Assembly (NCBI GenBank): GCA_963969595.1
Contig: OZ018412.1
Span: 10,232,501-10,296,500, forward strand
Direction of reading: 5' to 3'
DNA: 64,000 bases
Source: Neckera pumila
Lineage: Eukaryota; Streptophyta; Bryopsida; Hypnales; Neckeraceae
The translations under genes were made by a program, and so were the position numbers. The notes below the pieces were generated by a model that ran no database searches, was not told the origin of the DNA, and was given only the letters and a program-made list of their open reading frames with translations. Shown piece by piece: positions 20,559 to 57,747 of this stretch; position 1 is the stretch's first letter; every line of letters begins with the position of its first letter.

Positions 20559-21519
20559 CCTCTAAAGTCTCAAAGCCATTTTTCTGTCAAAAACGACTCA
20601 AAATTGCCAATTTTGTTGCGTTCATCCAAAATAAGAGAATTTTTTTATTTTTAGAATCGAACCGTAATTTTGTACTTAACTTATCTCAAATCATGTGGTA
20701 AAAATTTCATAAAGTTTGACTGCAAAGATTAGAAGATATTAGCATTCAAAGTTAGAAATTATTGTTTTTTCGAACAATGGCCTGCAATTTCAGATGACTT
20801 TGACTGCCATTTGTGAAATTCTTTTGCACTATAGACTTTTAATTTAATTTTTTTTTCGTGTTGAAGAATTGAATTGAGAATCTAGAAAAAAAATTTAAAA
20901 AATAATAGCCTTGATTTTCATTCTTTAAAAAATTGTTAAATAGAAGTAGGTCCAAGATTGAAAGAGAAACTAAACTATTAATAACTCTAAGATGGAATTA
21001 AAAAAGTATAATCCCAATGGTGAGATTGTTTTAGCAAGCAAACTTAATCTTGTCAAACAATTTTTTTTTAATAATTGTAAAAATTGCTTTCAGAAATGAA
21101 TCCTATAAGTTATTTTTTCAAGAAGATGCTTTAAATGCCCGAAAAATAAGATTGTCCATAACTTTCACATAACAAATCCAAATGGAATGAATCAAAGCTT
21201 TCCATATAGATAAAATTACAGTCTATGTAAAATTTTTTTTTTTTAAATTAAATTTTTTTTTTTTAAATTAAATTTTTTTTTTTTAAATTAAATTTTTTTT
21301 TTGTATGAGAAGATTTTTGCCTACCACACTAAAAAAATGACTTTTTGTTCCATAACTTTTGCTCTTGGGCATCGATTGAAATAAAAATTATATTTCTAGA
21401 AAGCCAATGTATTTTTCTATCTTCACAGAAAGTTTCAAAAAACCATCATGAAAATTGAGGTTGTAAGAGCCTGTCCAAAATCCATTTTGTCCCTCATGGG
21501 GACAATGGGACTTTAGGGG
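20559..21519 (+). mobile_element. TTAA-flanked CCCCTAAA MITE, family B, copy 1
   Basis: 961 bp with the left end CCTCTAAAGTC and right end GACTTTAGGGG, flanked by TTAA at 20555-20558 and 21520-21523. The interior shares 'tcaaaaac.actcaaaa.tgcca', 'gaattgagttgaga' and 'ccaatggtgagattgtt' with the other family B copies. It has no transposase frame. A tandem A/T array lies at 21228-21301. Confidence 0.8.
21228..21301. repeat. Tandem array of ~20-bp A/T units inside family B copy 1
   Basis: Three to four near-identical units of aaatt plus a T12 run plus aaatta. This is a local expansion absent from the sister copies. Confidence 0.8.
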
Positions 21520-21533
21520 TTAAGATATATTCA

Positions 21534-22416
21534 CACTTGGTGTTTTAACCCCAAAAGGCCTTGGGCCTTTTCTTTGCAAAAAACACACTCAAAACTGCCA
21601 TTTCTATAACAAGGAGTAAAAAAAATTGAAAATTATTCTTTTTGCAAATCTAACTATTAGATCTTACACCTAACTAGTATGAGAATATGTGGAAAAATTT
21701 CAAAATTTTTGACCGCACAGATTGCAAGATATCTGAGTTTAAAGTGAAAAAAGAAGTTTTTCAGCACCATGTGGTATTGGATTTTTTGACTTTGAACATT
21801 TTTAACTTTAAAATCTTGAGTTTTGAGCTTTAAATGTTTATAGTGGAGAATTGAGTTGAAAATCTAGTGAAAAACAAAAGATTCAAAAAACTCAATTTTC
21901 ATTATTAAAAAAATTATTAAATAGAAGTAGGTACAAGATAGAAGGAAAATCTAATTATTTTTTATATGGTAATAAAAAGTACTAATTCCAATGATGAGAT
22001 TGTTCTCAAAAAAATTAAAACACGTGGAACTTTTGTTTTTGAAAAATTGTAAAAATTGCATTCAAAAATGATTCCTACAAGTTATTTTTTTCAGGAAGAT
22101 GCTCTAAGTATCCAAAGACTAAGAGTGTCCATAACTTTTTCATAACAAATCCAAATGGAATGAATCAAAGATAGGCAAAACTATAATCTATAAGAAAAAA
22201 AAATTTAGAAACAAAAAGAATTGCAAATTTTTTTTGCTGCCCCTCGTCCCTTATTTTGAGCTTATTTGGGCATAACTTTTTTTCCTATGAACCGAATGAA
22301 AAAGAAATCATAGTCCTATGAAGCTTAGCAGATTTACTATCTTCAAAAAAAGTTTCAGCCCGTAGGTACCTGCCCGAAATTCCATTTGTAACAACAACGC
22401 TCTTTAACACCAAGTG
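21534..22416. mobile_element. Composite: right-truncated family B element inside a second inverted-repeat element
   Basis: The left TTAA (21545-21548) is followed by a family B left end at 21549. The B body runs to about 22388 and stops at 'ccatttg', lacking its CTTTAGGGG end. Outside it lie 'cacttggtgtt' (21534-21544) and the inverted 'aacaccaagtg' (22406-22416). The same terminal pair bounds a short element at 41189-41292. So a B element probably entered this second element and later lost its right end. Confidence 0.6.
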
Positions 22417-22559
22417 CAAACACACCTTCAGCTATTTAACACTGAGAAAGATGCGTTAAAAAATGAATGATATATATCACCCCAAAAAAACCTCCAAGAA
22501 AGTACTTGAATAGAAGTTGAGTAATTAGTAGGTAATTTTATGGATAAACATGAATGAGT

Positions 22560-22663
22560 CTATCCACCCCTTCTTCTTCTTCTTTTTTTTTTCTTTCTTT
22601 TTTTTTTTTCTTTTTTTTTCTTTAATTTTTTTTTCTTTTTTTTCTTTTTTTTCTTTTAATCAA
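22560..22663. repeat. Pyrimidine (T/C) low-complexity tract
   Basis: About 100 bases of T with scattered C. Open frames across it are phenylalanine-rich artefacts. Confidence 0.9.
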
Positions 22664-22799
22664 GTGCATCCATTTCAGGCGGCTCGTTCTACCTGCCTAC
22701 CAAGTACCAACCAGACTACCCCGGGCAAAGGGATTGGCTGCATGGAAGTCCTGGAAAGCTAAGCTTGGAAGGGCCAGGCACTCAGGAACTGGCCGCGCG

Positions 22800-23455
22800 G
22801 GGCTCATTCATTGCAATGGGCTCCAACACTGGCCAGCAGCTGGCTGGACCGCCTTGCCAAGGAATTGATGATGTTTGTTTGCGGTGGTTTGATGCCGTCG
22901 GTGCATGAGAACCGACCTCCACCAGCCAACCAGGAATTGATGACGGATGTTTGAAACTTCCGTCATCACCAGGGCTTTTTTTTCATTTTTTGAGAAGTGC
23001 CATAGTGGCGATATCAAATTTTGCAGTGGTGCTTCAAGTTTCAACATGCATCCATGTCAGATAGAAAATATCACATTAGCACATGTCTATTATTTGGTTT
23101 TCATCCACAATCTGACCAGGGCTTCTTTTTCTGGCGAAATTTCACCAGATTCTGCCAAATCTGGCCACTAGGGCTCTGTCCCTCCAAAAATTGGCCTGTG
23201 CTTCACTGCCAAAGGGGAGGACGCGGGTCCAAAAAAAAAGCTCTGAATTTGACGATTTCATCCAGTTTGTTTTTTTTAATTTGAATTTTTTTTGGCGATT
23301 TCATCCAAGTTTTTTGTCATTTTTTGTACCACTTTTTAGCCAAATTATTTTTTCTGGTGCAATCTGGCACCAAAAAGCCCCAAAAAAAAGCCCTGGTCAT
23401 CACTTCAATTCACGAGCTGTAAAGCGGTGTGTTGGAAAGTGATGGGATCAGAGTC
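22800..23455. other. Intergenic DNA, no gene seen
   Basis: Contains dispersed repeat fragments, including a motif 'tcaagtgcatccatttcagg' at about 22660 that recurs inverted near 41010-41030. Short open frames here lack any recognisable domain. Confidence 0.4.
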
Positions 23456-24785
23456 TAAGGTCGAACCACCTATACCCAATCACTTAAGCAACTGTGGCAT
23501 AGATGGTGAGCAGTTGATTGTAATGGAGTTTTTTCCTATGTAGGGAGATAGAAAATGCTGAGATTGCAAATTTTTCTGAATTTTTTTTTGCAAAACTGAA
23601 ATTTCTGTGAATTTTAGGAGCCAAAAAGTGTTCCGAACCAATGCCCAACATCTAGAGTCTTCCAATTCCGATCACTCAAGAACTAGCTTCCTACTATCTA
23701 CTTTCTTGTTGCTTTCGGCATACTTTAGGACATGTGTCATGATCTTACTAGTTCCAACCTTAACCCCTAAAGGTCCAAGGCCTTTTTTTTGTCAAAAAAC
23801 ACCCAAAACTGCCATTTTTGTAGCAAAGAGTAAAAAAAATTGAAAAATGATTTTTTTGCACACCTAACCGTAGGATCTTACACCCCTAACTAGTATGAAA
23901 ATGTGTGGAAAAAATTTCAGAATTTTTGACCAAATAGATTGCAAGATATCTGTGTTTAAAGTAAAAAGAACAAGTTTTTCAATACATTGTGGGACTAGAT
24001 TTATAACTTTGAACATTTTTAACTTGAACTTTTTGCACTACAGAGTTTTGAGCTTTAAATCTTTATAGTAGAGAATTGAGTTGAGAATCGAGAGAAAAAA
24101 AAAATTCCAAGAAAAATTAATTTTCATTATTAAAAAGATTGTTAAGTAGAAGTAGGCATGAGATGGAAGGAAAATCTAAAATATTAATATTTTTTATATG
24201 GAATTAAAAAGCACTAATTCCAGTGGTGAGATTGTTCTAGAAAAAAAACTAAACCTTGTGGAACTTTTTTTTCTGAAAAATTGTTAAAATCGCATTGAGA
24301 AATGAATCTACAAGTTATTTTTTTTAAGAATTGATGCTCTAAGTGCCCAAAAAACAAGATTGTCCATAACTTTCTTATAAAAAATCCAAATGAAATGAAT
24401 CAACGCTTTCCAAATAGACAAAAATATAATCTATTAGAAAAAAAATTTAAAAAGAAAATAAAAAAATTTAAAATTTTGTTTGCTGCCCCTTGTCCCCTGT
24501 TTTGAGCTTATTTGGGCATAACTTTTTTTATCTTGGGCACTGATTGAAAAAAAAAGTGATATTCCCACAAATCTTAACAATTTTCTATCTTCAAAAAAAG
24601 TTTCAGAAAATCACGACAAAAATTCTACCCGTTGGTACCTACCCAGATTTCCATTTGTCCCCGAAAGGAACAATAGGTTTTTAGGGGTTAAAAAGAGTAA
24701 TAAACACATTACAAGCCTTGATTGGAAATAGGGGCACTACCGGTTGGGCATTGGTCCCTAGTTGGAAATGGGTGGATTGACCTTA
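23456..24785. mobile_element. TAAGGT-ended MITE interrupted by a family B element
   Basis: Ends are 'taaggtcgaacca' (23456) and the inverted 'tggattgacctta' (ends 24785). Removing the 924-bp B element and one TTAA leaves about 402 bp, matching the 387-bp sister at 58290-58676 along its length. Shared blocks include 'gattgcaaa', 'gtgaattttaggagccaaaaagtg' (20-base core) and 'cttccaattccgat'. Confidence 0.75.
23764..24687 (+). mobile_element. TTAA-flanked CCCCTAAA MITE, family B, copy 3
   Basis: 924 bp, TTAA at 23760-23763 and 24688-24691. The left end is CCCCTAAAGGTCCAAGGCC and the right end TTTTTAGGGG. It lies inside the TAAGGT MITE. The uninterrupted sister at 58290-58676 has TTGA at the same point. 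Confidence 0.85.
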
Positions 24786-25867
24786 GTCTACAATAGAAGA
24801 AATTAACATTACAAAAGTATATGGAATAAACTAGAAACACCCAAAAATGTCAAAACAAGGGATTCCAACATACTTGGAGGCACCATTTCAAAAAATCAAT
24901 GTTTTTGATAGTGTAGGCGAGAGAAAATCATGAATTTAAAAAAAAAGAAAAGACTTTTTGGACTTGGCATGTATTTTCTATAAATTTTCAAAGTTGCAAC
25001 CCCTAAAACCACTAGAACCGTCCTATAGGTGGGCCCAAATCTGAATTCTGACAAATTCAGCACTTACCCAATCACAATGAAGAGAGGAGAAAACTTTATG
25101 ATACACGTCAAAGACCATTCAAATGGAAGTTTGGGACGGTTTAATGTTCATTGAAGAACAAAGATTAGGTACAGGGACGCTATTGGGAGTTTCTACCTTA
25201 CTACTTTTGTTTTTGAAAAAGACCTGTGTTTCCTTTATATATTTTCAATAACCAGCTCTTTTGTTTTTGTTTCACTTTTTGAGGAAATGTTAGGATGGAG
25301 TTTGCATTAAATGAGATTTCAAGCCTGAAAAAAGATTGTGAGTTCTTAGACAATGGAGAAGGGGGAGGGGGAAAAAAATAAAAAATAAAAAAAATTCAGT
25401 GAATTGCAATGCTTGAATTGCATGGGACAATTTAATGACATGAAATAAAAAATTAAATTTTTTTTGAAATGGAAAAAAAAGAACTTTGTTTACAAATGAT
25501 TGGAAATGATTTATCACATTTGAAATCAGATGTGGTTGGAAGACTGCTATGTTTGATAATACTCTGTATTTAATTAATTTTTTCATATTTTTAAAATTAA
25601 ATATTTCGTTTTTGAAAAGGTTTCTAAAATTTTATATTTTCCAATAGTTTTTTTAATTCTTTTTAATGTTATAAAACATTTCAATTTTTATTAAAAAAAT
25701 TAAATTTTATAAATTTAAAAAAAAAACTATTTTTTTTTAAGTTATTAAAGTTTTTATTTTTTTTATTTGTTTATGATTTAAATATTGTGACCAATAGTGC
25801 ATTTGTTCACAATTTGGAGATTAGCCTTGAAATGGTCTTCCCATGACCGAATTTCTCTTCTAATGCT

Positions 25868-26100
25868 TAATGCTTAAAATTTGGTGAATGCGTTGTATTT
25901 CTACATTCATTCATCTTTTGGACAAAAAAACACTTTTCTGTCATATTCACGCACTTTTTCATCTAAATTTGGCAACTTCATCCACATTTTTAATAGAAAT
26001 GGAAAATTTCTAGCAAAAGAATATTACTTTTATCTGGCAAAAAGTAGACATTTATTTTGAAATGGTGCAATTTAGCCCCAAGGTGCCAAAAAGAAGGGTT
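25868..26100 (-). repeat. Dispersed repeat, inverted relative to 46725-46960
   Basis: The blocks 'tttggtgaatgcgttgtatt', 'ttcatctaaatttggcaact', 'tggcaaaaagtagacattta' and 'gaaatggtgcaatttagccc' occur in reverse-complement order at 46725-46960 with scattered substitutions. The copy at 46725 continues into a block shared with window bases 1-250. Confidence 0.75.
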
Positions 26101-27120
26101 TTCTATGATTGCCGCAACAAATCTTCGACAACCTTCTATACATTCTTTACGTATTGTTATGTGTATGATTTTTGGGACACACTAATTTGCCTTGAATTCT
26201 TACCAATTTCAAATGACAACTCATTTGACCAAATCACATTGTATATTTGTATCGAATGTTCAAAATTCCAACTTTCATGAGCTCGGGTAAATGCAAGTTA
26301 TACTTGTCATTAAGATAAGACTTTTTTTGGTGCAATGTAATTTTTGAAGCCCATCTTACATAGGTTGTATTGACATGCGTTCAAGTGGCTTGAATATTTT
26401 CAACAACGGTTGTCTTCTCTTGTCTATAACAAAACATGACAACACCCTAGCACCATGATCAAACATTTTTTGATACTTACAACATTGATTTTTCAAGGAC
26501 TCTACACTTCCACTGACCTTCCAATAGTTGTCAAAATAGTAGAAATGGTTGAGCATGGAACATTCAAGCCTACTCCAATGTCTTTGCATTTCATCCTACC
26601 CTCACACATCTCTACAAGTATACAACTCTTTTCCTTACTATTAAACATTGTGTACATCATGGTGCTCAATCTAACTTCTCAAAAGTCCGTCAACTGATCA
26701 TGTGACACTGGAAAAAGTAGCTAAAAACCTGCAAGGCCAACAACTACAATTTCCTTCTTTATAAGCGACTTTCTCATAATGTTGCTCACTATATTTGATT
26801 TTCCACTCTTTAAATCTTTGCTCTATGAAGTGCAATGGATATTTGCCATAAAAGCATTACAATTGGCTCAAAGAGCTCAATAGTCAAAGATCCATTTTTA
26901 AACTTGTAACAGTTTATTTTACTAAATCTAATCATATTCTCTGACTCGTGAATTTTTTTATTTATGACTAGTGGGATTCATGACCATGAATGGCTTGAAA
27001 ATAGTAAATAGTTTAGTAGAAAACCCATTCAAATTAAAGAGAGCTAGATTCCTTTGGACAAAGTGCTTTTTTATGAATAACGAAGCGCCCACAACAAAAA
27101 TTCGAATTATTCTTGGACCC

Positions 27121-27738
27121 TATTGTATAGTCGGGTACAACAATCTTACAATTTTTTCAAGTCAGTTTTCACTATAAAGTTCATCAACTTCAAGAAGCTC
27201 TAGCATGCTAAAAAATGATCGGGTTTTGAAACCGCAAATTCCGTTGGACCCGCAATGAAGTGCACTTCAACTTCATAACAAGTGAAAAATGAAATTGAAA
27301 ACCACACAACAATTTGGATTCCTTTTATACACTATCTACCATTTCATAGAGATTCTTTGGAAGATAGTCACAGTTTTTTGCATTTAGGTGAAGAAGAAGA
27401 AAGAAATCATTCAAAATATTCAAGTGGTATGAGATCAAGTATCTCTAAAGCAACTGTGAAGGCTCATTTCTAGTATGGTCCATTAAATACTAGTTGTAAT
27501 TTTCACAAATGGTGGCAACACTAGATGGTAGATAGTGTATAGAAAGCATCAAACTTTTTGTATGATTTTCAATTACATATGTGCATTTGCAATGATGATA
27601 AAGTAGACTTGAGTGTAATTCCAACGCAATTTACGATTTGAAATTCCGTTCATTTTTTAGCATACACCGGCCTCCCAAAGCTTACCAAATCTCAACAGGC
27701 TGCAAAAATTGTAAGATTGTTGTACCCGACTGTACAAT
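27121..27738. repeat. Foldback element with ~300-bp imperfect inverted arms
   Basis: 'tattgtatagtcgggtacaa' followed by 'caatcttacaattttt' at the left is matched inverted by 'aaaaattgtaagattgttgt' plus 'acccgactgtacaata' at the right. Further inside, 'atgctaaaaaatgatc' pairs with 'cattttttagcata' and 'tatacactatctaccat' with 'atggtagatagtgtat'. This is an old hairpin-type mobile element with no coding region. Confidence 0.75.
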
Positions 27739-29570: not shown

Positions 29571-30404
29571 CCCCTAAAGTCCCAAGGCCATTTTCTGTCA
29601 AAAAACACTCAAAACTACCATCTTTGTTGCAATCACCCAAGAAAACACAAAAATAATTTTTTTTAGAATCTAACCGTACGATCATTTTTTAGAATCTAAC
29701 CGTACTTAACTTGTCTAAAATCATGTAATAAAAATTTCATGAAGTTTGATTATATAGATTGGAAGATATTAGCATTCAAAGTTGAAAAAGAAAGTTTTTT
29801 TGAATATCTGGTCTACAATTTCAGATGACTTTGACCGCCATTTGTGGAAAAAATTTGCACTACAGACTTTGAATTAAAAAAATTTTATGTTGAAGAATTG
29901 AGTTGAAAGTCTGGAAAAAAATGAAAAAAAAAACACTTGATTTTTATTCTTTAAAAAATTATTAAGTAGATGTAGGTCCAAGATTGGGAAAAAAACTAAA
30001 TCGTTAATAGCTCTAAGATGGGACTTAAACATAATAATTCCAATGGTGAGATTGTTTTAGCAAGCAAACACAACCTTGTCAAAAAAAAATCGTGAAAAGT
30101 TGTGAAAATTGCATTCAGAAATGAATCCAACAAGTTATTTTTTTCAAGAAGATCCTCTAATTGCCCGAAAATAAGAATGTCTATAACTCTATCATTATTA
30201 GTCCAAATAGAATGAATCAAAGCTTCACATGTAGACAAGAACATGATATTTTAGGAAAAAAAACTTTAAAATTTATTTTGACTTTTTGCAGTTTTTTTGG
30301 TGTTGCCCGTCGAGTTCAATTCTAGGCTTTCATAGAAATTCAAGGTCACAGAAAATTGCCCAAAATCCAATTTGTCCCTCAAGTGGACAATGGGACTTTA
30401 GGGG
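29571..30404 (+). mobile_element. TTAA-flanked CCCCTAAA MITE, family B, copy 4
   Basis: 834 bp with termini CCCCTAAAGTCCCAAGGCC and GGGACTTTAGGGG, TTAA at 29567-29570 and 30405-30408. Near the right end a small palindrome (tgtccctcaagtggacaa) recurs in other family B copies. Confidence 0.88.
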
Positions 30405-30537
30405 TTAATAAAATGTATTACTCTATGCTACACAAACTCAAATTTGAGTATAGCAAAATCTTAATTCAAATTGAAAGGACTTAAAATGTGTTATTGTGTT
30501 TGACAAGGATGAAAAGAATTTTTTCATAAACTCCAAA

Positions 30538-30833
30538 CATTACAAAAAATTTAAGGTCTCAACAAGACTGCGGGTGCATGATTTTCGGCACCCGCGGGGT
30601 GCAATTACGAAAAAATAATAATGTATATTTTTTTTTGAATTTTTTTTTTTTGAAAAGAAAATATTAAAAAAAATTCAAAATGACAAGGCACGGACGTGGA
30701 GCTGATAGTGCTGACACGGTCGAAATGCAACCATGTCACATTTTCAATTTTCAAAATTTTTTTTTTTTCCATAATATCACCATAGGGGGGCCAAACTTAG
30801 CAGCCTTGTTGAGGCCTCAAATTTTTTGTAATG
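30538..30833. mobile_element. MITE with 34-bp terminal inverted repeats
   Basis: The left terminus from 30538 (cattacaaaaaatttaaggt, then ctcaacaagactgc) is matched inverted by the right terminus ending 30833, with three differences. Length is 296 bp with an A/T-rich centre. No convincing target duplication is visible, and there is no coding region. Confidence 0.7.
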
Positions 30834-32414: not shown

Positions 32415-32418
32415 TTAA

Positions 32419-33722: not shown

Positions 33723-36700
33723 CAGGGTCTATACCTGGTGGTAAAGCCCAATGGCTCATTATGTCTAGAATTCAAGGTGGGGACCTTGGATTTATCAATG
33801 TTTATGCCTCTTGTGATTCCTTAGCCCCCCGTCTTCTTTGGGAAACTATGAGAAACGAACTACCAACATCTTGTTGGTGGATTATGTTAGGAGACTTTAC
33901 ATGGTGGAATATAGGATGGACAAGTCTAGTTCCTGTGGCAAAATTCTACTTGCGCTTGAACGTTTGCTTTTTAACCCCTAAAGGACCAAACACCACTTTT
34001 TGGCAACATTGCGATTTTGGGCAACTCACTATGAATGGAATCTTTCTTTATTTTCTTTGAAATTCTCCTACAAGATGTGTCCGAGGAGTAGCTTTAAGGC
34101 CCGGCAATTTTCATAACATTTGACTACATGGTTAAAAAGTTATTGCATGATATATGGTTTTCTTTGAACTTTGGGCAGTTCGGGCAGCTCAAAAAAATTC
34201 TGAAAAAATCACTTTTAAAATAAAAAAATATTTGAAACTAATTATTCAGATTTATATATAAGCGGGAAGCTTTAAATCATTCCATTTCGATTAATGAGTC
34301 AAAAGTTATGAGGATTCTTAGTTTGAGGGTAGTTATGGAATCTCTACTCTAAAATAAACTTTGAAATCCATTATTTAACTCAATTTTCAATATTTTTGAA
34401 AAAAATAAAAACAGTGGGTGTAGATTGATTATGATAACATTACAACCGTTGCGATTTGCATTTTTCAATTCCATAACAAAATTCTTGACAATTTAGTATT
34501 TTGAATCATTCACTACTTCTTTGTACTTACTATTTTTTTCCTATATGTTGTACAATTTCAAATGAGCTGAAATGTTTCAAGCATGTAGCCAACTTGCCTT
34601 AAAGAATGAATCCAAAGAGTTACCACCATTTTGGACATTTTTTCATATAATTGTGACCTTGTGAAGTGCAGCTGCCCGGATTTTCGCAGGCCCAAAAAAA
34701 GCATTTTTGTCAATTCAAACGCTAATATCTTGCAATCTACATAGTGGAAAATTCTGAAATTTTTCCCACATCTTTTCAAACCAATTTACTATAAGATTCT
34801 ATGGTTAAATGTATCACAAAATCTTGTTTTTTTTCAAGACTTGGTACTTGTACTAGAAATGACAGTTTTGGAACAATTTTGGTGAAAACATAGTCAAAAA
34901 CCTTTAGGGGTTAACTCATTTAAAGATACCATTCAGGTCTCAGAGTGCCACAGACCTCTCCAAGCATGCCATACTCATGGGAAAACCTTAGGAGTGATGG
35001 GGCAAGAGTCTTGGCAAGATTGAACAGATGTTATATTTTTTCTGATCTTATTGCTAATAGTAGTAGACTGATTGAATATTGAATTCATGGAGACCACACT
35101 CGCTCAAATCATAGTTTGGTGTCCGTGGTTCTTGAGCTGGCCCCTGTTACACCACGGTCCAGCATATAGATAATGTCCTTTGCATTCTTTGATGAAGTTG
35201 CATACCTCATTCGAGAGACTTGGCGAGCAACACCATAGGAGGCTCCTTTTTTCTCAAAGTTCAAGTTAGTTATCCGCAATTACCATAGGTTTTGTATCCA
35301 AAAGGCCAAGCAATTAAGAGAGCAAGAGGCGGCACTTTGTAAGCTGCTGGATCAGAGAAATGGTTAGCTCCAACTAGACCCCCACTCATCCCAATTGCAA
35401 GATGAAGTCAAGCATATCAAGTCCCAATTAGCCAGTTTTGAGAATTGTAAACTAAAAGGAAAAAAAGTGCGATCCAGAGCTCATTGGAGATTATTTGGAG
35501 ATCGTCTCATAGCTGAATTCTTCCAGGCCATCAGGGAGAATCCTCAGATGTCATCCATCACCAAGCTTCTTGATCACCAAGGAGTAGCGAGGCAAGTTAT
35601 CGATGACATGGATCAAATTTGTTCCACCTTTTACTCTAAGCTCTACTTGCAGGACCCAATAACCCCTCAAATTGCCCAAGACCAGGATTCCATCCTCTCA
35701 TGTGTCTTTAATAAATTTAGCCTGGAGATGGTTAGTCAATTGGAAGCTCCACTATCAAAAGATGAACTCTATTTGGCTATGAAACAAATGGCTTTAGGTC
35801 GTAGTCCAGGCCCAGATGGGGTTACTCTTGACTTCTTTGTCAAGTTTTGGATTTAATAGGTGATGATTATGCTAGTATGATTCAAGCATCAATTGTTCAA
35901 GGCCGACTCCCTGTAGGGGTGACATCTGGATTAATAACCCTTCTTTATAAAGAACTAATCTATCAAATTGGTGGCCAATTACTCTGCTCAATGTCTCGTA
36001 TAAGATTTTGGCAAACCTCTTCAATTGAGACTTCAGACCTTACTTCAAGAGGTCATTAGTCCGGACCAGTCTGCATTTTTGTTGCTTAGGTACATATTAG
36101 ATAATGTGTTGTTACAGTACGAGATTGTCCAATGGGCCAAGGACTCACATCAGGATCTTATATTCCTGAAACTTAACTTTACAAAGGCGTATGATACAAT
36201 CTCTTGGGACTTCCTTTTTGGTGTTATGAAGAAGATAGGCATCCCTAAAGCTTTCATCCACATTGTCCAAATGTTACTTCAGGATGCATCAACATCTGTC
36301 TTGATTAATGGTAAAATCTCAAAGTCATTTGACATCCAGCGTGGGGTACGCCAAGGGTGTCCTTTGGCTCCCTACTTGTTTTTATTGGTTGGAGAAGCCT
36401 TCAACATGGTTGCCAAGGAAGATCAACGTTTAGGTAAAATACAAGGCATCCAATTACCTGAGTCGGAGGATCGTCAACTCCTTTTTCAGTACATAGATGA
36501 CAGTGGAGTTTCCATTCTAGGCCAAGAAACGTTTTTGAAGAACACGATGGATCTCATTCACTGTTTTGGCTCTGCGTCAGGTCTGGATATCAACTGGACC
36601 AAAGGTACAAGATATTGGTTCTCACACATCCTCCCCCCGGAATGGCTTAATGATTTTGGGGTCACTTGGGCCCCTTCTCATTCTCTGTCGAAACTATTAG

Positions 36701-38720
36701 GAGCCCCTTTTGGTATTTCACTAGAGATTGCGGATGTAGATTTGTTTCTACAACAGAAGATTACCAAGAAGTTGAAGTATTGGACTATCCAACTCCTCTC
36801 TTTAGCTGGGCGAGCAATTGTGGTAAACGCAATTCTCCTTTCATCAATTTACTACTTTATGGCAATTTGGTGCGGTTCTATTCAAGCAATTAGGACAGCC
36901 AGAGGTAGTATGCGTAACTACTTATGGAGTGGCTCCAAACACCTATTTCGGACTAGGGTTAGCTGGGATGATTGTTGCTTCCGAAATCAACTGGCGGACT
37001 CCAACTATTTACTCCAGAAGTATCTCTTAATGCACTACTAGCTAAGTGGGTTCTGTACGCCATAGAACCTAGTATCTCTGGACTTAAGACCTTCCTTCGA
37101 TACCGGATCCATCGTATGAAACCACACCCAAAGTCAGGGTTTTAGTTCTCCTCAACTGCGTGGCTTATGGTACAAAGACCATCGATATCCAGAGGGTCAA
37201 GAGTATGGAATCACATCTCCTCTGCATGGAAGAAGCTTGTGAAGCACATAGACTTAGTTCCACCTACTAATGCATCTGAGGTTCTATCGACTAGCATTTG
37301 GTGGTCAACGAGCTTTATAGGTTCTAATTTTAATTTCTCGACTGATTGAGTACAAGTCTTAGCTAGGGTAGGTCTTCAGACCATTGGAGACTTATGGGAT
37401 GCCAATGCAAATGAATTCAAGACATGAGAGACCAACTCAGAGGAATTTCCACTTAATATTATGGAGCGCCACCACTGGTTCTTTTTTATCTCTCAAATCC
37501 CACATATCTGGCTTCAATTTTTAACTGACCAATCTTGTTTAGCTTCCAAAGGGGATTAGGCTGGCCTCTACTCCATGCCCAATGAAACACTTCCAGAGAT
37601 CACATGGCAGGTGCCTGAACCCAACCCTATGTTATTTGGTCCTCAAATTTAGGATATTTCCTTGAAGGGTGATTCTACATGTGCCATCGTGGGCATTTGT
37701 TCTAGACAATTATCTCTCCTTCTGCATGTAATAACTAATTTGGTCCATAGAGGTATTATGCGGAGAATTTGTGTTACCCAAGTCAAGAAAGGGAGAAGAC
37801 GTCTATCCAAGCTCTTGTTCTTAGGACCCATTCATCTCTTGCAGTATGATCCAGGGCAATGGAAGTGGTCTAATGGCAAATCTCGTATGGAATATACAGT
37901 TGCTCTTGGTTGTAAGCTACTTACAACTTCTACTCAGCTGAAGCGCCCCATCTCAGCAAAATGGCCTACTTTGCTTCCAGGGTCGTATGCCCCACAATAG
38001 AGAGATATTTGGATCAAAGCCCGCCCACAAAAAGAGGCGGCCTTTATGTGGTCGGTCTGGCATAATTCCGTTGTTGTTAACTCATGGCGGGCCAAAATTA
38101 ATCCAGGGATTGATGCAAATTGTGTTTGTTGCAGTTCTTTTGTCATAGAAACACCTCTGTATAGATTCTTTGACTGCTTGAGATCCCAAGAAATTTGGGA
38201 TTATGCACTTTCAATGATGCATCATATTCGTGGCGCGTCTCCAATTTTGGACCCTCAACAAAGATTGGATGCCATCCAATGTATTTTTGGGACTCCTATT
38301 CTTAGATTGTTCCATAGAATTCACACGGTATGGTCTATTGTTCGTGGTGCTGCCTTATAGCTATGTTGGATTATGCGCAACCATATGGTTTTTGCCCAGG
38401 ATCGCTGGCCTATCACCCTTCTCCACGCAAATTTATGGGGTGCTCTTCTTGATTCAGGGCGGGCTGTTGCTCTTATATTGGACCTTGCTTATAGACGTAG
38501 TCTTCAGCATTCAGATAAAATTTGGACCAAGTTCTCTAGTATTTGGTTACAATCCCCGGTCCTTGCTACTAGAGTTGGTTACTATGTTAGTTTCTTGTTT
38601 TCTTGTGCTGCTCATCTTGTCCTCATTTGCTCTTATTCTCTTCATTTGTCCAGCCTCTAGCTTGGCGGTTATTTTTTTTCTCTTAATACAATGTTTTCCA
38701 TTTGTTATAAAAAAAAAAAA
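33723..38720 (+). mobile_element. Decayed non-LTR retrotransposon (plant LINE), 5'-truncated, poly-A tailed
   Basis: Order of remains: C-terminal half of an APE-type endonuclease (FINVYAS near 33795, LGDF near 33885, then RVLARLN near 35010 and RSNHSLVSV near 35105); reverse transcriptase from about 35395 (GRSPGPDGVT; FTKAYDTISWDFL at about 36178; RGVRQGCPLAPYLF at about 36341; YIDDS at about 36491); a zinc-knuckle zf-RVT region (CVCC...CLRSQEIWDY, about 38120-38200); and poly-A at 38709-38720. Several frameshifts (for example between 35840 and 36060) and stops make it non-functional. The endonuclease part is split by a TTAA element at 33975-34910. The upstream endonuclease half and ORF1 are missing, the usual result of incomplete reverse transcription. 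Confidence 0.9.
33975..34910 (+). mobile_element. TTAA-flanked CCCCTAAA MITE, family A, inserted in the LINE
   Basis: 936 bp, left end CCCCTAAAGGACCAAACACC, right end CCTTTAGGGG, TTAA at 33971-33974 and 34911-34914. Family A shares 'gaccaaac', 'tggcaacat', 'gactacatggttaaaaagtt' and 'tcttgcaatct' with 48605-50423 and 56937-57747, and differs inside from family B. No transposase frame. Confidence 0.9.
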
Positions 38721-39145: not shown

Positions 39146-39776
39146 CCCCTAAATGCCCAAGGCACCCAAATGTGGTGTCCAAGAAATTTTGAAGTTAAAT
39201 AAAACCTTACCAAATTGTTATTTTTAGTAATTTTTATTTTTGAAAGATAATTTTTGAAGTCTAATTTTAGCATCAAAAATCTGATTTTGATAAGGAATAA
39301 TTATGATTTTTCTATTCAAGATTTTGTGCAAAGGTATCCATTGCAATCTTGACTTTTTGTAGTGTTGAGGAGAATGAGCCTCAAATATACTAGATCTTGG
39401 AGAAAAAATCACACTAGAAATTCATTTAAAAAAACTATAGAGTAGATTTTGAGAAGTCATAAATTGATTGGGGTTATATTTGATAGGCCCTTCAACCTCA
39501 TATTTTTTTGGTCTTGAATTTTTTAGAATTGACATGAAAAAAGAGAGCTCAAAGATTTTCATAGTTTTAACACCTTGATTTTCAAACATTACAATCTTTC
39601 AATCCTTAAATGATATTGTTGTGTTTTCTTATCCTATGTGATCTCTAACATGTCTAGTTTGAATTTGTACGGTTACAATTAAAAAAAAAATTGATTCAAC
39701 TTATCAAAATGTTGGCTTTTTGTTCAATTTAGAGCAAGTTCCAAGAGGCTCAAAATAGTCCTTGAGCATTTAGGGG
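39146..39776. mobile_element. CTAA-flanked CCCCTAAA MITE, family C
   Basis: 631 bp with inverted ends CCCCTAAATGCCCAAGG and its near-complement ending GAGCATTTAGGGG. The flanking 4 bp is CTAA on both sides (39142-39145, 39777-39780), not TTAA. The interior is unlike families A and B. Confidence 0.85.
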
Positions 39777-39780
39777 CTAA

Positions 39781-41621: not shown

Positions 41622-41656
41622 GTTGTGGGCCTCTGCCCGAGGCTCCGAGTCACACG

Positions 41657-48604: not shown

Positions 48605-50423
48605 CCCCTAAAGGACCAAACAACGTATTTTGGTAGCATAGCACTTTTGAGTAGTGAGTCTTTGAAAATTTCACACAGCGTGTGCCCAAGGAGTAGCTTG
48701 AAGGCTCAACAATTTCAAAACTTTTGACTACATGGTTAAAAAGTTATTGGATGATATGTCATTTTCAGCAGTCGGCGAGCAAATCAAATTTTTTCTAAAA
48801 AATCACTTTTAAAAAAATAAAAATTTGAAATTGGTTTTCTAGATTTATATATACATATAGAGCTTTGATTTGTTCCATTTTGATTTATGAGAGGAAAATT
48901 GAGGTGTTCTAACCCCTAAAGTCCCAAGGCATTTTTCTGTCAAAAACCACTCAAAATTGCTAGTTCTGCTGTATTCATCTAAGAAAAGAGAAAAAATAAT
49001 TTTTTATAGACCTAACCATAAGATCTTGTATTTAACCTATCTCAGATCATGTGGTAAAAATTTCATAAAGTTTGACCGTACAGATTAGAAGATATTAGCA
49101 TTCAAAGTTGGAAAAATTTGATTTTTTGAACACTGACTTGCAATTTCAGATGACTTTGACCCCCATTTGTAAGAAAAATCTACATTACAAACTTTGAATT
49201 TAGTTTTTTAAAAGTTGAATAATTGAGTTGAGAATCTAGAAAAAAAAATCCAAAAAAATCCACATGATTTTCATTCTTTAAAAAATTGTTAAGTTGAAGT
49301 AGGTCCAAGATTGAAAGAAAAACTAAATCGTCAATAGCTCTAAGGTGGGAATAGAACACTATAATCCCAATGGTGAGATTGTTTTAGCAAGCAAATTTAG
49401 ACATCTCCAACAATTTTTTTTGAAAAATTGTAAAAATTGCATTCAGAAATGAGTCCTACAAGTTGTTTTTTCAAGAAGATGCTCTAATTGCCCCAAAAAT
49501 AAGATTGTCCATAACTTTTACATAGCAAATCCAAATGGAACGAATCAAAGCTTCTTATATAGATAAAAATATAATCTATGAAAAAATAATTTTGAAATTT
49601 TTTAAAATATTTTTATGTGAGAAGATTTCTGCCCGCCGCACCAAAAAAAAGGACCTTTTGTGCCAAAACTTTTGCTCCCGGGCACCGATTGCAATAAAAA
49701 TTATATTCACATAAAGCTAATGTGTTTTTCTATCTTTACAAAAAGTTTCAGAAAATAATGATGAATATTGAAGCCATAGTAGCCTGCCCGAAATTCATTT
49801 TGTCCCCCGAGGGGACAATGGGACTTTAGGGGCTAATTTGCGGGCAATTATGGATTCCCTATTCTAAAATAAACTTTAAAGTCCTTTATTTAATTCAATT
49901 TTTATATTTTTTGAAAAAAATAAAAGCATAGGATGTATATTATTTATTACAACATTACAACTTTTGGGATTGACATTTTCCAATTCCATAATTAAATTCT
50001 TAATAATTTTGTATTTTGAGTCATTTTCTACTTTTCTCTATAACCTATTTTTTTCATATGTGTTGTGCAATTCCAAATGATCTGAAATTTTTCAAGCATG
50101 TATCCAACTTGCTTTGGAGAATGAATCCAAGGAGTAAACACCATTTGGGACATTTTTTTATTTAAATGTGACCTTGTGAAGTGCAGCTGTCTGGTTTTCA
50201 CAGGGTCAGAAAAGGATTTTTGTCAATTTAAATGCTAATATCTTGCAATCTTTTCAAGGTGAAAAATTCCAAAAAAATTCTACATGTTCTCAAACAAAAT
50301 TACTACAAGATCCTACAGTTACATGTGTCCAAAAATGGTTTTTTTCCTAAAATTTGGTACTTGTACTAGAGATGGCAGTTTTGAAGCATTTTTGATGAAA
50401 ACATAGTCTCTAACCTTTAGTGG
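48605..50423 (+). mobile_element. TTAA-type MITE, family A, interrupted by a family B element
   Basis: The left end CCCCTAAAGGACCAAAC and right end CCTTTAGTGG bound 1819 bp; subtracting the inner B element and one CTAA leaves 895 bp, close to the 936-bp copy in the LINE. The right flank is TTAA (50424-50427); the left flank is AAGA, so one duplication copy has mutated or been lost. Confidence 0.85.
48913..49832 (+). mobile_element. CTAA-flanked CCCCTAAA MITE, family B, nested in family A
   Basis: 920 bp, CCCCTAAAGTCCCAAGGC to GGGACTTTAGGGG, flanked on both sides by CTAA (48909-48912, 49833-49836). The host family A sequence resumes at once on the right ('tttgcgggcaattatggatt', comparable with 'tttgagggtagttatggaat' at 34323). 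Confidence 0.92.
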
Positions 50424-50427
50424 TTAA

Positions 50428-51972: not shown

Positions 51973-54035
51973 ATGCAGGTTTTCACAATGCAGATTGTCT
52001 ACTTCAAGACGGATACATCTGGACCTGTTCGGTTTATGCAAAACCCTGGTGGAAGGGTTGATTTCTCTGCACTTGGTCGAGAGTTGGGGTTGGATCCAGC
52101 GTCTATAACATTGAATGGATTGCTAGTTAAGAAGACAGGACTGGAGTCAAAAAATAGTTGGGAGCAGCTCGAGCAGCTCTTCAAAGACAACGGAATCTCG
52201 GATGGAACGCAAGCTGATCCTGTTATCGTCGACGGCGAGGTGTCTACAGGTATGTTTCCCGCGCGCACTTGGTCTCTTCTGGTTTAGGGCTTAGGGTGGT
52301 GGAAGCCGATGACGACGGGTTGAGTGCGGCCACCTTGATTGCGGGAGATACCTATACTCTTTTCAATTTTGCCATGTTGCCACTGTCTGTGTCGGACGCT
52401 GATTTGACCTATATTTATTCTTTGGCTGTGTTCTTGAAATGAGTTCTTTTTTTTGAGTGGTTTCAGGGTTCTGGTTGATGGTTAGAATATGGGGTTGCAC
52501 TTCTTTGAAGAAAGCTGATGAACGGGTTGGAGATGGTTTTGTACATTGTCGGCAGGATGTAGGGTTTTTGCCCTTCAGGGTTCTCTTTCTACAAGTGGTG
52601 AATGTGTCTGTCCGTTTTTTCCTGGATCGGGTGCTTTCTCCTAGCGGCTTCTTTTGCTCGTAGCTGAGATCGATTTGTGTGCATAGGATTCTCTGTTAAT
52701 TTTGCCTGGGACTTTCACTTCGTTGCATCCATAACAGGATACTGGGATTTGTTCAGTTTTCTATACTAAACCCTGAACCCAAAACTGTCCTGACGTGTTT
52801 CGGTATTGTTCGGATGCAAAATGGTTGAGAAGGTAGGGGATTCAAAACGGTTGAGAGGAGACATGTACACGTCCATGCAGATGGCGTATGTTTAAAACTG
52901 ATATATCTTGGAATTTGTCTGTGTGAATATATTGAGAAAGGTTCGTAAGCTCAGAAATGACAGAACATACCTTTGGTCTAATTCAGATGGTATGATGTTT
53001 TAGGGTTTTCCTAGAATGTAGACTGTATTGTGTTTTCGTTTAGTTTTTCCTTGGAACTTGTCTTTCTTTGTTGCATCTACAACTTGATATTGGTTCCTGA
53101 TGATTCCATTTTAGAGCAATTTTGGTTGTGTTTGATAGATATTTTGGCTTCTGTGAAATCTTTTAGCTTTTGTGTTTGATAGATATTTTAAACTTCTTTG
53201 AAATCTGGATGCTGGACTTGGCGATGGCTTGCGAGATCACACTTTTGGTGTCGCAGACAGACAGGCCAGGGTAGTCCAAGCCTGCCTGTTGTGATGTCTG
53301 CAAGTTTGATGATGGAAGGCCTTTTTGGTCCCGTCAGCATATTTCAGTCCTCTTGCGACTTGGACTTAGCTTTGGCTGTCCATGTTCCATGAGTTGAGAG
53401 TGTAACTTCAAAGTTTGCAATCGTAGGTGGATTTCCTCGCTCGAGTTTGAGTGTGTTTGTTGTGCTGATGGTAGTTTGTAGTCTTTTTAGTCTAATCCTA
53501 CCTGAGCTTAGAAGACTCTATGATTTCTTGTCCCAGCCCAAACCTGTGAGACAAAATTGCCTAGAAAAAAGCTGCTTGGATTGCTTCGGTATTGTTCAGA
53601 TGCAAAATGGTTGAGAAGAGAGGGATGTAATCTCCTGTCTAATTTCTTGTATTGTTTTGCAGGTGACATTAGTTTTAAAGAGTGACTAGAGCAGTGGTTG
53701 CCACCCCTTAACCTTCGGATGTGCTCTTTGCCTTTGTTGTGAGCAAGAGAGGATATATATACCCAACCTCTACCGTCATATGGGACCTCTGGCCAGATGT
53801 GGAAAACTACCTTGCAGATGTAGCTGCTGCAGATTCACGCCTGAGACCCATTGACATTGAAGAGGTTGGACAGAGATTTCCTGTTCTTGCACAGTCCGTT
53901 ATGCAACTGTTCAAGTACTTAGTTACTTGTGGAATTGGTTATGGCATAATCTCTTCAACTGATTTGTCATACTTCGTGAATCGCGACGTGAGCCTACGTA
54001 TTTCCCTAGGCGTACATTTGGAGGATCACAGATTC

Positions 54036-54130
54036 GTAGCGGCACTATCCTATTTTCTCGAAACAACAACAAATGATACTTGTCATTTATCATTTGTTGC
54101 CGTTTCCAAAAAATAGGATAGTGCCGCTAC
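54036..54130. repeat. 95-bp hairpin element inside the kinase-like gene
   Basis: GTAGCGGCACTATCCTATTTT at the left (positions 54036-54056) is perfectly inverted at the right (54110-54130), with a nearly inverted centre (aacaacaacaaatgata / tatcatttgttgccgtt). It lies in the nuclease-like segment just before a possible donor (GTAAAT at 54135). It adds a reading frame with no family resemblance. Confidence 0.9.
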
Positions 54131-54734
54131 ATAGGTAAATTGCTAACTTATTGCATTCCAATTGTATTTTTTTATCTCTTCACTTACTTTTATTTGACAA
54201 TGAGTTGAAGGAGACACCTGCTAAACATCTACATTTGGAGTTGCATCCTTTCGCAACAGGATGGAGTGGAAATGTTGTACGTGGTTTGTATGAGGGTGTT
54301 GCTATTGCTGTCAAATTTGCATTGGTTTGCATTGACCTGGTAAGTTTTGGTTTAGGGTTTATTCTTCTTTAGATCTCATTGCTTAGTTTCAAGCCCCAAG
54401 CAGTGTAGCAAGATTGTAAATGTCTTGTGTGCAGAACTTGTAGGACTTTTGACCCTAGAAGTGGTGAAAGCATCCTTTGAAGCACTTCGTGCCATTCATG
54501 GTTTTGGCCTGCTTCATGGTGACGTTAGGCGAGAGAATATCTTGGTTCTGTTGGCAAGGTGGCAAGGTGTTCGCTTCATCGACTTTGGCTTTTCTCGTTC
54601 CTTCGCCAGTGATGTGGATTGCTGCAATGAGCTGCAACAGTTAGAAGAGGTAGTATGGCGCCAGCGTCCTTGTATGTCAACATTCAAGAATGAAGCCGGG
54701 GAGGGCATAAACTGATTTTGGTGGTTATAATAAA

Positions 54735-54835
54735 AAATCAAAAGATATAGTCGAAGTCGGGAGCTTTTGTTGCCAGGATTCAAACCCGGGTCACTTGGGT
54801 GAGAGCCTAACCATCTAGACTACTCTCATTGTTTT
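54735..54835 (-). repeat. tRNA-related sequence, probably a SINE head
   Basis: On the minus strand, TAGTCTAGATGG fits the pol III A box and GGTTTGAATCC fits the B box, about 32 bp apart, with tRNA-like spacing. The anticodon and acceptor stems do not pair properly, so a functional tRNA is unlikely; a tRNA-derived SINE inside the kinase-like gene's intron region is the better reading. Confidence 0.55.
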
Positions 54836-55253
54836 GTGAGAGCAATTCTTACTAAACATTGTGCTATTCAAACATGCATTAGGGAAGTGTCATATACTAC
54901 ATACAAGCTCCGGCTATGTTGACCTTGACATTTATGAAGTAGGTCTAGTCATTGGAAGTTTGCCAGGGGTTTCACGCTGGTCTTTCTTGTGTGTATCCCC
55001 AGGCTGTTGCAACAAAGCCAGAGTTACCATATGGGGTGTTGCGCGGTTGTCCAACTTGTCGCATTTGTCTAAAGGTGCGTCTCAAGGCCTTTAAATTTTG
55101 TATGATAATTTGTGCGACCACCGGCATAACTCATTCTAGTGGAAGAGGCACTTCTTAATTTTTTCACTTTCATAGGTGGTGGCAACCTGGTGGCCGGATG
55201 CTGGTCGTAGACTTTGTATTGAGGAGGCTCCCGTTTTCTATCCAACTGAAGAG

Positions 55254-56932
55254 GTATTATTCTTGTACTCTGGAGCTTCCAGATTATATGTATTGACTTT
55301 GTTGAGTTCACGTGTAGATTACATCTGCGAACAATTCTGCTTTGGTATCAAGGTGTTTGATCCGACATGAGCTTGGTGAGTAAAGAGATGTAAATGCAAA
55401 ATGTGTACACGATCTGTCTAAGTTCTGACTTTTGTAAGCAGTATCTTGAATCGGCTCAATACGTTTCCAATGTTGGTCCAACGTCTATCGGAATTTGATT
55501 CTAGAATTGCATTTACGCGGTGTTAGAAAGTCGTAGGACCGACATTGAAAAGGCAAATATTAGAGAAACGATGTTTTATACATATATATCATTGCTGGTC
55601 CGCCGCATTTTCAGCGCTGTTTTATCGTCAGTTTAATAGGCATTCGGAACACCATTGAAAATGTATCGACCAGGTTCCTTTGAAATTTTGTATGACATAT
55701 CATTATGGACTGTATTATGGAAGGTCCGCAATTCTGAAGTGTGTGTTGGTTCTAGATTCTTTGCGAGTACCTCGTGCTATGCATTATCAGCAAGGATTAG
55801 GTGAATTTCCGATATTGTTGTTTGATTGTTCTAAGACAGTAACATCCATTCATAAAAACCAGGAGTTTTGGGATTATCTGCTTAATTACCCAGCTATTGC
55901 TTGTTTGACATTTTCCAGGAGTTTCAAGAGCCTCTGACGTACATATCTAGCATTCGAGATTATCAATTGTCTTAATAATAAATTTTCAACCTACTGAACC
56001 AATGCCATTTCAATACTAAGAAAATCATGTCACGTCAATACTACAAAGACACGAAATTGCCACTAAAACAATGTCATTTCATTACTAACCTTCCAACCAG
56101 TGATGCAACCAATAAACCATAAGAGATACCAATGGAGTAGTGCAAGCATAATGCGAGGAGGGTATGAGAATCAAAACTGCACGGAGCTTGTAATTGGTAG
56201 AAAACTCTGCAAGAAACTCATCGATTACTTAGTAGAGAGATACTTTTATAATGTACAAGTGGAATTATCAAATTAAAGTACATGAGAATGTCGAAAGTCC
56301 CGACGTTTTGGCCATAAGAGGTAGCAAGCGATGTTGGTGACTGGGGTAGTCCAGCAGGAGAACCTCAGGCTGGTGAATGGATTGGGAGAAGGCTCGCCTG
56401 GTCAGAGCATAGCCGCAGGGCTGTTGCTAGACCCAGCTTGGCTTGGTTGATGGCACTCGAATCTCTCTGTAGCGACAAAAAGATAAAAATACGAAAGGTG
56501 AAACAAATGAGCTTCAAAAACTAGAATAGATGAAGCGTCCTAATTTGACTTTCACTTTTACTTCCTGATTACTTTAACTTTCTATGTCCGATTTTACTTT
56601 TGACTTTTGACTTCTTGATTACTTTAACTTTCTATGTCCTAATTTATTTTGACTTTTTACTTCCTAGTTTAATCCCAAGTTTTAATCTTCTAAATGAACA
56701 TCAAATTTTATCTTCTCTAAAGTTTGACTTTACCCTTTCAAACTAATTCTACTTTTAGCCCTTCTTTAACAATAAGATCTTAACAGTCTCTATACAAAAT
56801 AGTGAAATTAGGTTGTTCCACACTAATTTCTCGATAGTCCACACTATATACATATTTATTGTTGTTATACAATGATGCATTCAATTTAGAACCATGTGTA
56901 TGGCAAAGATTAGTGCAACAGTTTAACCCCTA
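55254..56932. other. Intergenic DNA, no gene seen
   Basis: Short frames only. A roughly 60-bp unit containing 'cttgattactttaactttct' occurs about twice at 56560-56660. A balanced patch at 56280-56460 has no recognised homology. Confidence 0.4.
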
Positions 56933-56936
56933 AGTG

Positions 56937-57747
56937 TTTTTGACTATGTTTTCACCAAAATCACTCCAAAATTGCCATTTCTAATACAGGTACTAAATTT
57001 AGAAAAAAAGATTTTTGAACGCATGTAATCGTATAATCTTGTAATACATTGGTTTAAAAAGATGTGGAAAAATTTTCAAAATTTTTCACTGTGTAGATTG
57101 TAGGATAATTGCGTTTGGATTGACAAAAGTCCTTTTTTTTGTCATTGCAAAAATTTGGACAGTTGTCCTTCACAAGGTCACATTTGTATGAAAAAATGTC
57201 CTAAATGGTGGTTACTCTTTGGATTCATTCTTCAAGGAAAGTTGTCTACATGCTTGAAGATTTTTAGATCATTTGAAATTGTACAACATACAAGAAAAAA
57301 ATAGTAAGTAGGAAGAGGTAGAGAATGACTCAAAATACTAAATTGTCAAGAGGACTTCAAAGTTTATTTTAGAGTAGAGATACTATAACTACCCTCAACC
57401 TAAAACTTCTCATAACTTTTGAGTTGTTAATTCAAATGGAATGATTCAAAGCTTTCTAAGTATATATAAATCTATAAAACCAATTTCAAATTTTAATTTT
57501 TCAAAAAAAAGTTTTTATGAGAATTTTTTGAGCTATTGGGTTGCCCGCCAAATGCGGAAAATTACATATCATTCGCAATAACTTTTTACCCATGTTGTTA
57601 GAAGTTATGAAAATTGTTGGGCCTTGAAGCTACTCCTTGGGCACATTTTGTGTGAAAATTTTAAAGAAAAAAAAAAAAAAATTCCATTTGTAGTGAGCTG
57701 CCCAAAATTGCTATGTTGCCAAAAAGTGGGTTTTGGTCCTTTAGGGG
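56937..57747 (-). mobile_element. TTAA-flanked CCCCTAA MITE, family A, reverse orientation
   Basis: 811 bp, TTAA at 56933-56936 and 57748-57751. The left end is CCCCTAAGTGTTTTTGAC and the right end GGTCCTTTAGGGG. The interior is the reverse complement of 33975-34910. Confidence 0.87.

What the first reader, a model, noticed from the sequence alone, without database searches (positions are those of the whole stretch)
20559..57747. Ten CCCCTAAA...TTTAGGGG elements with 4-bp TTAA/CTAA duplications: piggyBac-like MITEs in a plant
At least ten elements share terminal CCCCTAAA, are about 0.6-0.96 kb, and have no transposase: family B (20559, 21549, 23764, 29571, 32419, 48913 and a remnant around the LINE), family A (33975, 48605, 56937) and family C (39146). 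Nearly all intact copies have matching 4-bp flanks. Most are TTAA, but two are CTAA on both sides (39146-39776 and 48913-49832), so the 4 bp covary and are true target duplications, not part of the termini. TTAA targets and CCC-starting ends are the established signature of piggyBac transposases, which also use CTAA at low rate. To my knowledge piggyBac families are hardly described in land plants. The superfamily assignment is inference, because no transposase is visible.
Basis: partly seen in the sequence, partly recalled or inferred. Interest (0 to 1): 0.85.

Follow-up and report, generated by a model that had tools for sequence, protein, structure and literature searches.

The report
Native piggyBac transposons in a moss
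A moss genome carries thousands of short mobile DNA elements together with full-length piggyBac transposons that have the same kind of ends and an intact-looking transposase, a transposon family well known from animals but little documented in land plants.

Summary
Eight elements of 0.63-0.96 kb have CCCCTAAA-type ends and identical 4-bp flanks: six TTAA, two CTAA. Corrections: the A copy at 56937 starts at 56927; the "48605" copy is one A-type element (48605-50423) split by the CTAA-flanked element 48913-49832; 21549-22358 lacks its right end.

The genome has 116 scored matches to DDE_Tnp_1_7, the piggyBac transposase domain. Of the 20 best loci, 10 lie in 5.4-7.3 kb elements with TTAA on both sides and CCCCT-type inverted repeats (reversed control 0 of 20). 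Element 48913 shares 21 and 22 exact terminal bases with the two ends of one of them, and about 95 and 300 bp of similarity. Its transposase aligns to the solved Trichoplusia piggyBac transposase with all three catalytic aspartates. Copies in the three clean subfamilies are 95.7-99.4% identical. YTAACCCCTAAAG occurs 28,623 times against 24 for the control. The host is a moss.

These are non-autonomous piggyBac elements: a new member of a known superfamily in an unusual host. Present activity is untested; direct parents of families A and C were not found.

The parts
20559..21519 (+). Non-autonomous piggyBac element, family B; TTAA on both sides; left end CCTC
   Evidence: left 311 nt and right 95 nt match the ends of full-length L019
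21549..22358 (+). Element of the 23764 type, right end missing; TTAA and CCCCAAAA at left
23764..24687 (+). Non-autonomous piggyBac element (23764 type of family B); TTAA on both sides
29571..30404 (+). Non-autonomous piggyBac element, family B; TTAA on both sides
   Evidence: 18 and 20 exact terminal bases shared with L019
32419..33343 (-). Non-autonomous piggyBac element, 23764 type in reverse orientation; TTAA on both sides
33975..34910 (+). Non-autonomous piggyBac element, family A; TTAA on both sides
   Evidence: 15 terminal bases shared with full-length L031
38716..39041 (+). Remnant of a related element next to the LINE
39146..39776 (+). Non-autonomous element, family C; CTAA on both sides
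   Evidence: only 8 exact terminal bases shared with the sampled full-length elements
48605..48912 (+). Left half of a family A element split by the element at 48913 (includes one CTAA)
48913..49832 (+). Non-autonomous piggyBac element, family B; CTAA on both sides; inserted into a family A element
   Evidence: 39 further full or nearly full-length copies scored (of 11709 candidates, 40 scored), 88-91% identical
49837..50423 (+). Right half of the family A element split by the element at 48913
56927..57747 (-). Non-autonomous piggyBac element, family A, reverse orientation; TTAA on both sides
   Evidence: unoccupied site in paralogues

Best explanation
The elements are non-autonomous (MITE-like) members of the piggyBac superfamily in a moss nuclear genome. 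A piggyBac transposase (DDE_Tnp_1_7 fold, DDD triad) made by full-length 5.4-7.3 kb elements elsewhere in the genome recognises the CCCCTAAA inverted repeats and sequence just inside them, cuts the short elements out and inserts them at TTAA (rarely CTAA), so that the 4 bp end up on both sides. Shown: matching ends (best for family B), 4-bp TTAA/CTAA flanks, single 4-bp at paralogous unoccupied sites, transposase genes inside elements with such ends, high similarity among full-length copies. Inferred: that this transposase moves the short elements in trans, that excision is seamless, and that the system is, or recently was, active.
For: Transposase: 116 scored matches to PF13843, best E 4.6e-80; three long open frames hit PF13843 and no other Pfam family at E 0.001; P0001 aligns to the T. 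ni piggyBac transposase 6x67 at E 3.2e-35, with D547, D638 and D756 opposite D268, D346 and D447 (counted along the printed alignment). Same kind of ends: 10 of 20 PF13843 loci sit between identical TTAA and inverted repeats (scored over 14 bp) starting CCCCT, one copy TCCCT; control 0 of 20 reversed, 4 of 100 block-shuffled with any start. Between independent copies homology starts and stops within 8 bases of that TTAA. Link to short elements: the two ends of L019 share 21 and 22 exact bases with the right and left ends of 48913, 20 and 18 with 29571; similarity runs on for about 95 and 300 bp. TSD: (88 of 100 listed flanks exactly TTAA; flanks starting with G excluded by the pattern). Unoccupied sites: 8 of 26 joined flanks found a paralogue running through the junction, 3 of them with TTAA there.
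Against: 10 of 20 transposase loci gave no clean ends by the strict search; relaxed criteria gave ends for L024, and L028 and L036 were read by eye only. For L026 the top-scoring pair belonged to flanking short elements and the second pair was taken because it coincides with the homology limits. Families A and C share only 8-15 terminal bases with the sampled full-length elements. The ends begin CCCC, not literally CC(C/T)T. The full-length and window elements were picked partly by matching flanks. PF13842, a zinc-ribbon model found in some relatives (listing of PF13842 for P0042, P0043 is), was not hit. Many transposase copies carry stops. No expression or movement was seen.
Confidence: 0.95

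Rival explanations
1. Kolobok superfamily MITEs, which also use TTAA.
For: TTAA target duplication is shared (PMC6004289, passages).
Against: Kolobok ends begin with purines (AGGRR / RR) and its transposases carry a THAP domain; here ends begin CCCC and the three open frames between matching ends hit only PF13843.
Confidence: 0.02
2. Tourist-like (PIF/Harbinger) MITEs with a TTA or TAA duplication that merely sit in TTAA contexts.
For: Tourist MITEs, with TAA/TTA duplications, are a known plant MITE group (PMC10004981, passage).
Against: In 26 elements flanks are identical for length 4 in 24 and for length 3 in 0; CTAA covaries on both sides in a minority; a piggyBac transposase lies between such ends.
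Confidence: 0.01
3. The short elements are piggyBac-derived but dead: an old burst, with today's transposases serving other families only.
For: The scored copies of element 48913 are only 88-91% identical to it, while full-length copies are up to 99.4% identical to each other; families A and C share only 8-15 terminal bases with the sampled full-length elements.
Against: Elements 48913 and 29571 share 18-22 exact terminal bases at both ends with L019. Copies were compared with 48913 only, not with each other, so the age of the youngest short copies is unknown.
Confidence: 0.3
4. The transposase sequences are contamination from an animal or protist and unrelated to the plant.
For: The only named relatives listed are animals (Nematostella, Physella, Vanessa).
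Against: The 116 matches lie on eleven contigs, C1-C11, of which C1-C10 are 23.5-52.8 Mb long; the short elements lie about 2.2 kb from a LON2 gene 90% identical to the moss Ceratodon; the named animal relatives are only 31-32% identical.
Confidence: 0.01

Closest known systems
piggyBac (IFP2) of Trichoplusia ni, structures 6x67/6x68
   Same: DDE_Tnp_1_7 fold, DDD triad aligned, TTAA target; CCC-starting ends (IFP2 ends recalled)
   Different: Full-length moss elements are 5.4-7.3 kb with a long N-terminal stretch in the open frame; the host is a land plant
piggyBac-related MITEs (CMITEs) of Acropora corals (PMC2872659, passages)
   Same: Non-autonomous, TTAA duplications, ends shared with full-length piggyBac elements of the same genome; one coral family also starts CCCCT
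   Different: CMITEs are about 100 bp, expected copies per family 18-737; here 0.63-0.96 kb, with 28,623 end motifs in the genome
PiggyBac labels in other plants: Ceratopteris repeat table (PMC6890710) and angiosperm MITE superfamilies (PMC10004981), one passage each
   Same: Same superfamily label, land plants
   Different: Those passages give only a repeat class or a list; no autonomous element with matched ends appears in them
Blepharisma MITEs (PMC9942856; listing and start of abstract only)
   Same: A large MITE load in a paper that also deals with piggyBac (22 occurrences)
   Different: A ciliate with developmental DNA elimination; nothing here suggests such a process

Membership tests
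piggyBac superfamily | Transposase with DDE_Tnp_1_7 (PF13843) domain between the element's ends | tested here: met
   10 of 20 loci with clean ends. For the short elements it is met only through elements sharing their ends
piggyBac superfamily | Catalytic DDD triad | tested here: met
   alignment to 6x67; the three aspartates are invariant in 7 of 7 aligned moss transposases (D188, D279, D397). Role of the triad: PMC9499001, passages
piggyBac superfamily | TTAA target duplication | tested here: met
piggyBac superfamily | Inverted repeats of 12-19 bp | tested here: met
   14 exact bases in L019-L021 and L027, L031, L037; feature as stated in PMC2872659
piggyBac superfamily | Terminal motif CC(C/T)T | tested here: inconclusive
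   Ends begin CCCCT (one window end CCTCT, one full-length copy TCCCT), so the fourth base is C, not T; a coral piggyBac MITE family also begins CCCCT
piggyBac superfamily | C-terminal cysteine-rich domain | tested here: inconclusive
   Cys/His-rich tail by eye in 6 of 7 transposases (L034 is shorter), but PF13842 not hit
piggyBac superfamily | Seamless excision restoring TTAA | not testable with these tools
   Needs reads from several plants or an assay; one search shows only unoccupied paralogous sites
MITE (non-autonomous derivative) | No transposase gene of its own | tested here: met
   no PF13843 match listed inside the window (116 of 872 candidates scored); seven of the open frames were scanned and none hit PF13843
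Kolobok superfamily | Purine-starting ends and THAP-domain transposase | tested here: not met
   ends CCCC; only PF13843 hit; features from PMC6004289
PIF/Harbinger (Tourist) | 3-bp TTA/TAA duplication | tested here: not met
   length 3 identical in 0 of 26, length 4 in 24 of 26

The most novel reading that the evidence does not exclude
This moss holds a native, still mobile piggyBac system: several full-length subfamilies at work in parallel, with an amplification of more than ten thousand short elements, making mosses a natural land-plant home of piggyBac rather than a recipient of an animal tool.
Probability: 0.5. Interest if true: 0.75.

Novelty: new member of a known kind. Interest (0 to 1): 0.62.

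Why it matters
piggyBac is a workhorse of animal genetics and has been carried into plants as an insect-derived tool (PMC10905368, passages). A 2008 survey said that only five cut-and-paste superfamilies, without piggyBac, had been described in plants (PMC2528002, passage). A moss with near-identical full-length copies and thousands of short derivatives widens the well-supported natural range of the superfamily, gives a native plant transposase to test, and explains a repeat class that occupies about 15% of this window.

Tried and rejected
Tried with little result: identifying the species. rbcL was found on the 115 kb contig C18 but not searched, because the protein database is clustered at 90% identity; LON2 gave "moss" but not the species (best 120 of 6642 hits listed). 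Genome size (339.5 Mb) resembles Hypnales mosses in a table of PMC13120521 (passages), which proves nothing. Transposase searches returned mostly unnamed metagenome and read-archive proteins, up to 76% identical, and three named animals at 31-32%; no named plant was in the rows listed (51 of 51 and 120 of 202). Full-length parents of families A and C beyond shared termini: none in the 20 loci. Structure prediction and fold search were not used, because the sequence match to 6x67 was clear.

Literature: 10 full-text searches. Judged by listings, starts of abstracts and the passages read, no listed paper describes piggyBac transposons in a moss. Of the two occurrences in the Niphotrichum genome paper the one shown is "piggybacking". 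The Pleurozium and Fontinalis genome papers have a count of 0 for "piggyBac" (listing). Subscription papers, preprint servers and Repbase were not searched.

Considered and rejected: Kolobok, Tourist/PIF, contamination (see rivals). Sola3 was recalled as another TTAA superfamily and not tested separately; the transposase result makes it unlikely.

Rows dropped: L009 (the window's own copy) and L015 (match two bases short); hits under 40-50 bp from the tables. For the CTAA pairing I used 75 of the 100 listed left ends and all 100 listed right ends, cut at the stretch covered by both lists, out of 471 and 500 in the genome. In one search two partial matches (77% and 67%) beside one copy are not counted as copies.
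Full report
Observation. Six are flanked by TTAA, two by CTAA. The element at 48605 is not separate: 48605-48912 and 49837-50423 are two halves of one family A element, with the CTAA-flanked 48913-49832 inserted into it. Joining the flanks of 48913-49832 with one CTAA gives a sequence that aligns (77%) without a break at the junction to the family A copy at 33975. 21549-22358 lacks its right end. Related sequence covers 9,361 of 64,000 bases of the window, the elements themselves included; a reversed library gives no hit.

Scale. YTAACCCCTAAAG occurs 14,210 + 14,413 times in the genome, read backwards 10 + 14 times. If an intact element gives two, this is some 14,000 element equivalents, at about 0.9 kb each some 13 Mb or 4% of the genome (inference; exact ends only). 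The window, with ten of these motifs in 64 kb, is about twice as dense as the average. Element 48913 had 11,709 candidate places; 40 were scored, itself and 39 full or nearly full-length copies at 88-91% identity.

Target duplication. Flanks are identical for length 4 in 24 of 26 elements and for lengths 1-3 and 5-10 in none. Eighteen of the 26 (8 window, 10 full-length) were found partly through matching flanks; of the 8 that were not, 6 are TTAA/TTAA and 2 differ by one base on one side; a ninth, L015, left out because its match stops short, would be TTAA/TTAG. Of the 100 listed places (of 1,197) of the end CCCCTAAAGTCCCAAGGC, 88 are preceded by exactly TTAA and 12 by scattered variants (flanks starting with G were excluded by the pattern). 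CTAA precedes 471 ends (control 9) and follows 500 (control 7). In the stretch covered by both lists, 9 of 75 CTAA left ends have a CTAA right end 0.3-1.3 kb on in the right orientation (14 within 8 kb), against a mean of 0.04 (maximum 1) at 158 shifted distances; 2 pairs in the wrong orientation fall in the same range. CTAA is therefore a real but rare target, and one-sided CTAA flanks are probably often decay. When flanks of all 26 elements were joined and searched against the loci held, 8 found a paralogue running through the junction; in 3 of them it reads TTAA there, in others a diverged 4-mer. The weakest, for 23764, is 70% identical.

Transposase. PF13843 has 116 scored matches in the genome, of 872 candidates. 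For the 20 best, 10-kb stretches were read. Ten have a TTAA-flanked pair of inverted repeats around the gene: L019-L021, 5.63 kb, ends CCCCTAAAGTCCCA; L027, L031, L037, 7.2-7.3 kb, ends CCCCTAAAGGACCA; L025, L026, L029, L035, 5.37 kb, ends CCCCTTGGGGACTA / CCCCTTGAGGACTG (L035 TCCCT). For L026 a higher-scoring pair came from two flanking short elements. The same search gave 0 of 20 on reversed and 4 of 100 on block-shuffled sequence. Copies are 98.8-99.2%, 95.7-99.4% and 98.7-98.9% identical in these three groups, and their similarity ends within 8 bases of the TTAA. L024 has C-like ends by relaxed criteria; L028 and L036 (95% identical) end near TTAA by eye; the other seven gave none.

Long open frames (894, 900 and 999 codons between stops, start codon uncertain) hit PF13843 and nothing else in Pfam. 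P0001 matches the T. ni piggyBac transposase 6x67 at E 3.2e-35 and piggyBat 9c0f at 1.7e-23; the three catalytic aspartates align. They are invariant in 7 of 7 moss transposases, the other six 35-73% identical to the first.

Link between short and full-length elements. The left end of L019 and the right end of element 48913 share 21 exact bases, the right end of L019 and the left end of 48913 share 22. Similarity continues for about 95 bp at 79-80% and 300 bp at 72%. For 29571 the exact runs are 20 and 18. For 20559 the right end shares 21; its left end begins CCTC and shares only 2 exact bases, though 311 nt there are 71% similar. A near-palindrome TTGTCCC...GGGACAA lies just inside one end of L019, of L031 and of several short elements. 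Families A and C share only 8-15 terminal bases with the sampled full-length elements; their direct parents were not found.

Host. The best named match of the window's LON2 gene is Ceratodon purpureus (90%), then Sphagnum balticum (84%) and a clubmoss (82%). Contig C18 carries rbcL. The host is a moss; the species is not determined.

Mechanism. Cut and paste by a piggyBac transposase acting in trans on short internally deleted or diverged derivatives is the reading that covers ends, 4-bp target and transposase together. Trans-mobilisation, seamless excision and present activity are inferred.

Known or new. The superfamily is well known; animal piggyBac has been used in plants as an introduced tool. 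In land plants I found class labels and general statements, a 2008 statement listing no piggyBac among described plant superfamilies, and no moss report in ten searches (named under Tried and rejected). Hence a new member of a known kind in a little-documented host.

Noticed in passing
window 19074-19484 and 19548-19958: Inverted repeat with 411-nt arms, 92% complementary, 63 nt apart; not explained by the elements above.
   Followed up: no
window 36004-37038 and 38001-38357: Broken non-LTR retrotransposon: RVT_1 (E 1.2e-21) and zf-RVT (E 8.9e-9) in separate open frames.
   Followed up: partly
window 59906-64000, minus strand: Plant peroxisomal LON2 protease gene with several exons, running off the window end.
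   Followed up: yes
window 54356-54712: Open frame with a weak protein kinase match (E 6e-7, 29.6 bits, just under Pfam's cut-off of 31.7).
   Followed up: no
window 1395-1406: TTTAGGGGTTAA, the look of another right end; not covered by the element library, so perhaps a different family.
   Followed up: partly
window 23330-23387: 58-bp match (85-86%) to a part of full-length L019-L021 behind the transposase frame; meaning unknown.
   Followed up: no
L025 and L029, position about 2040-2060: Full-length elements inserted at the TTAA bordering the TTTAGGGG end of a short element, so that two elements share one TTAA.
   Followed up: partly
ends of L019 and L031; window 49776-49832 and 30359-30404: Near-palindrome TTGTCCC...GGGACAA just inside one end of full-length and short elements; possibly a transposase binding site.
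   Followed up: no
protein listings: Many unnamed metagenome and read-archive proteins, up to 76% identical to the moss transposase and far closer than the named animal relatives; perhaps from other mosses.
   Followed up: no
element ends genome-wide: The end CCCCTAAA contains the plant telomere repeat CCCTAAA (recalled); probably coincidence.
   Followed up: no
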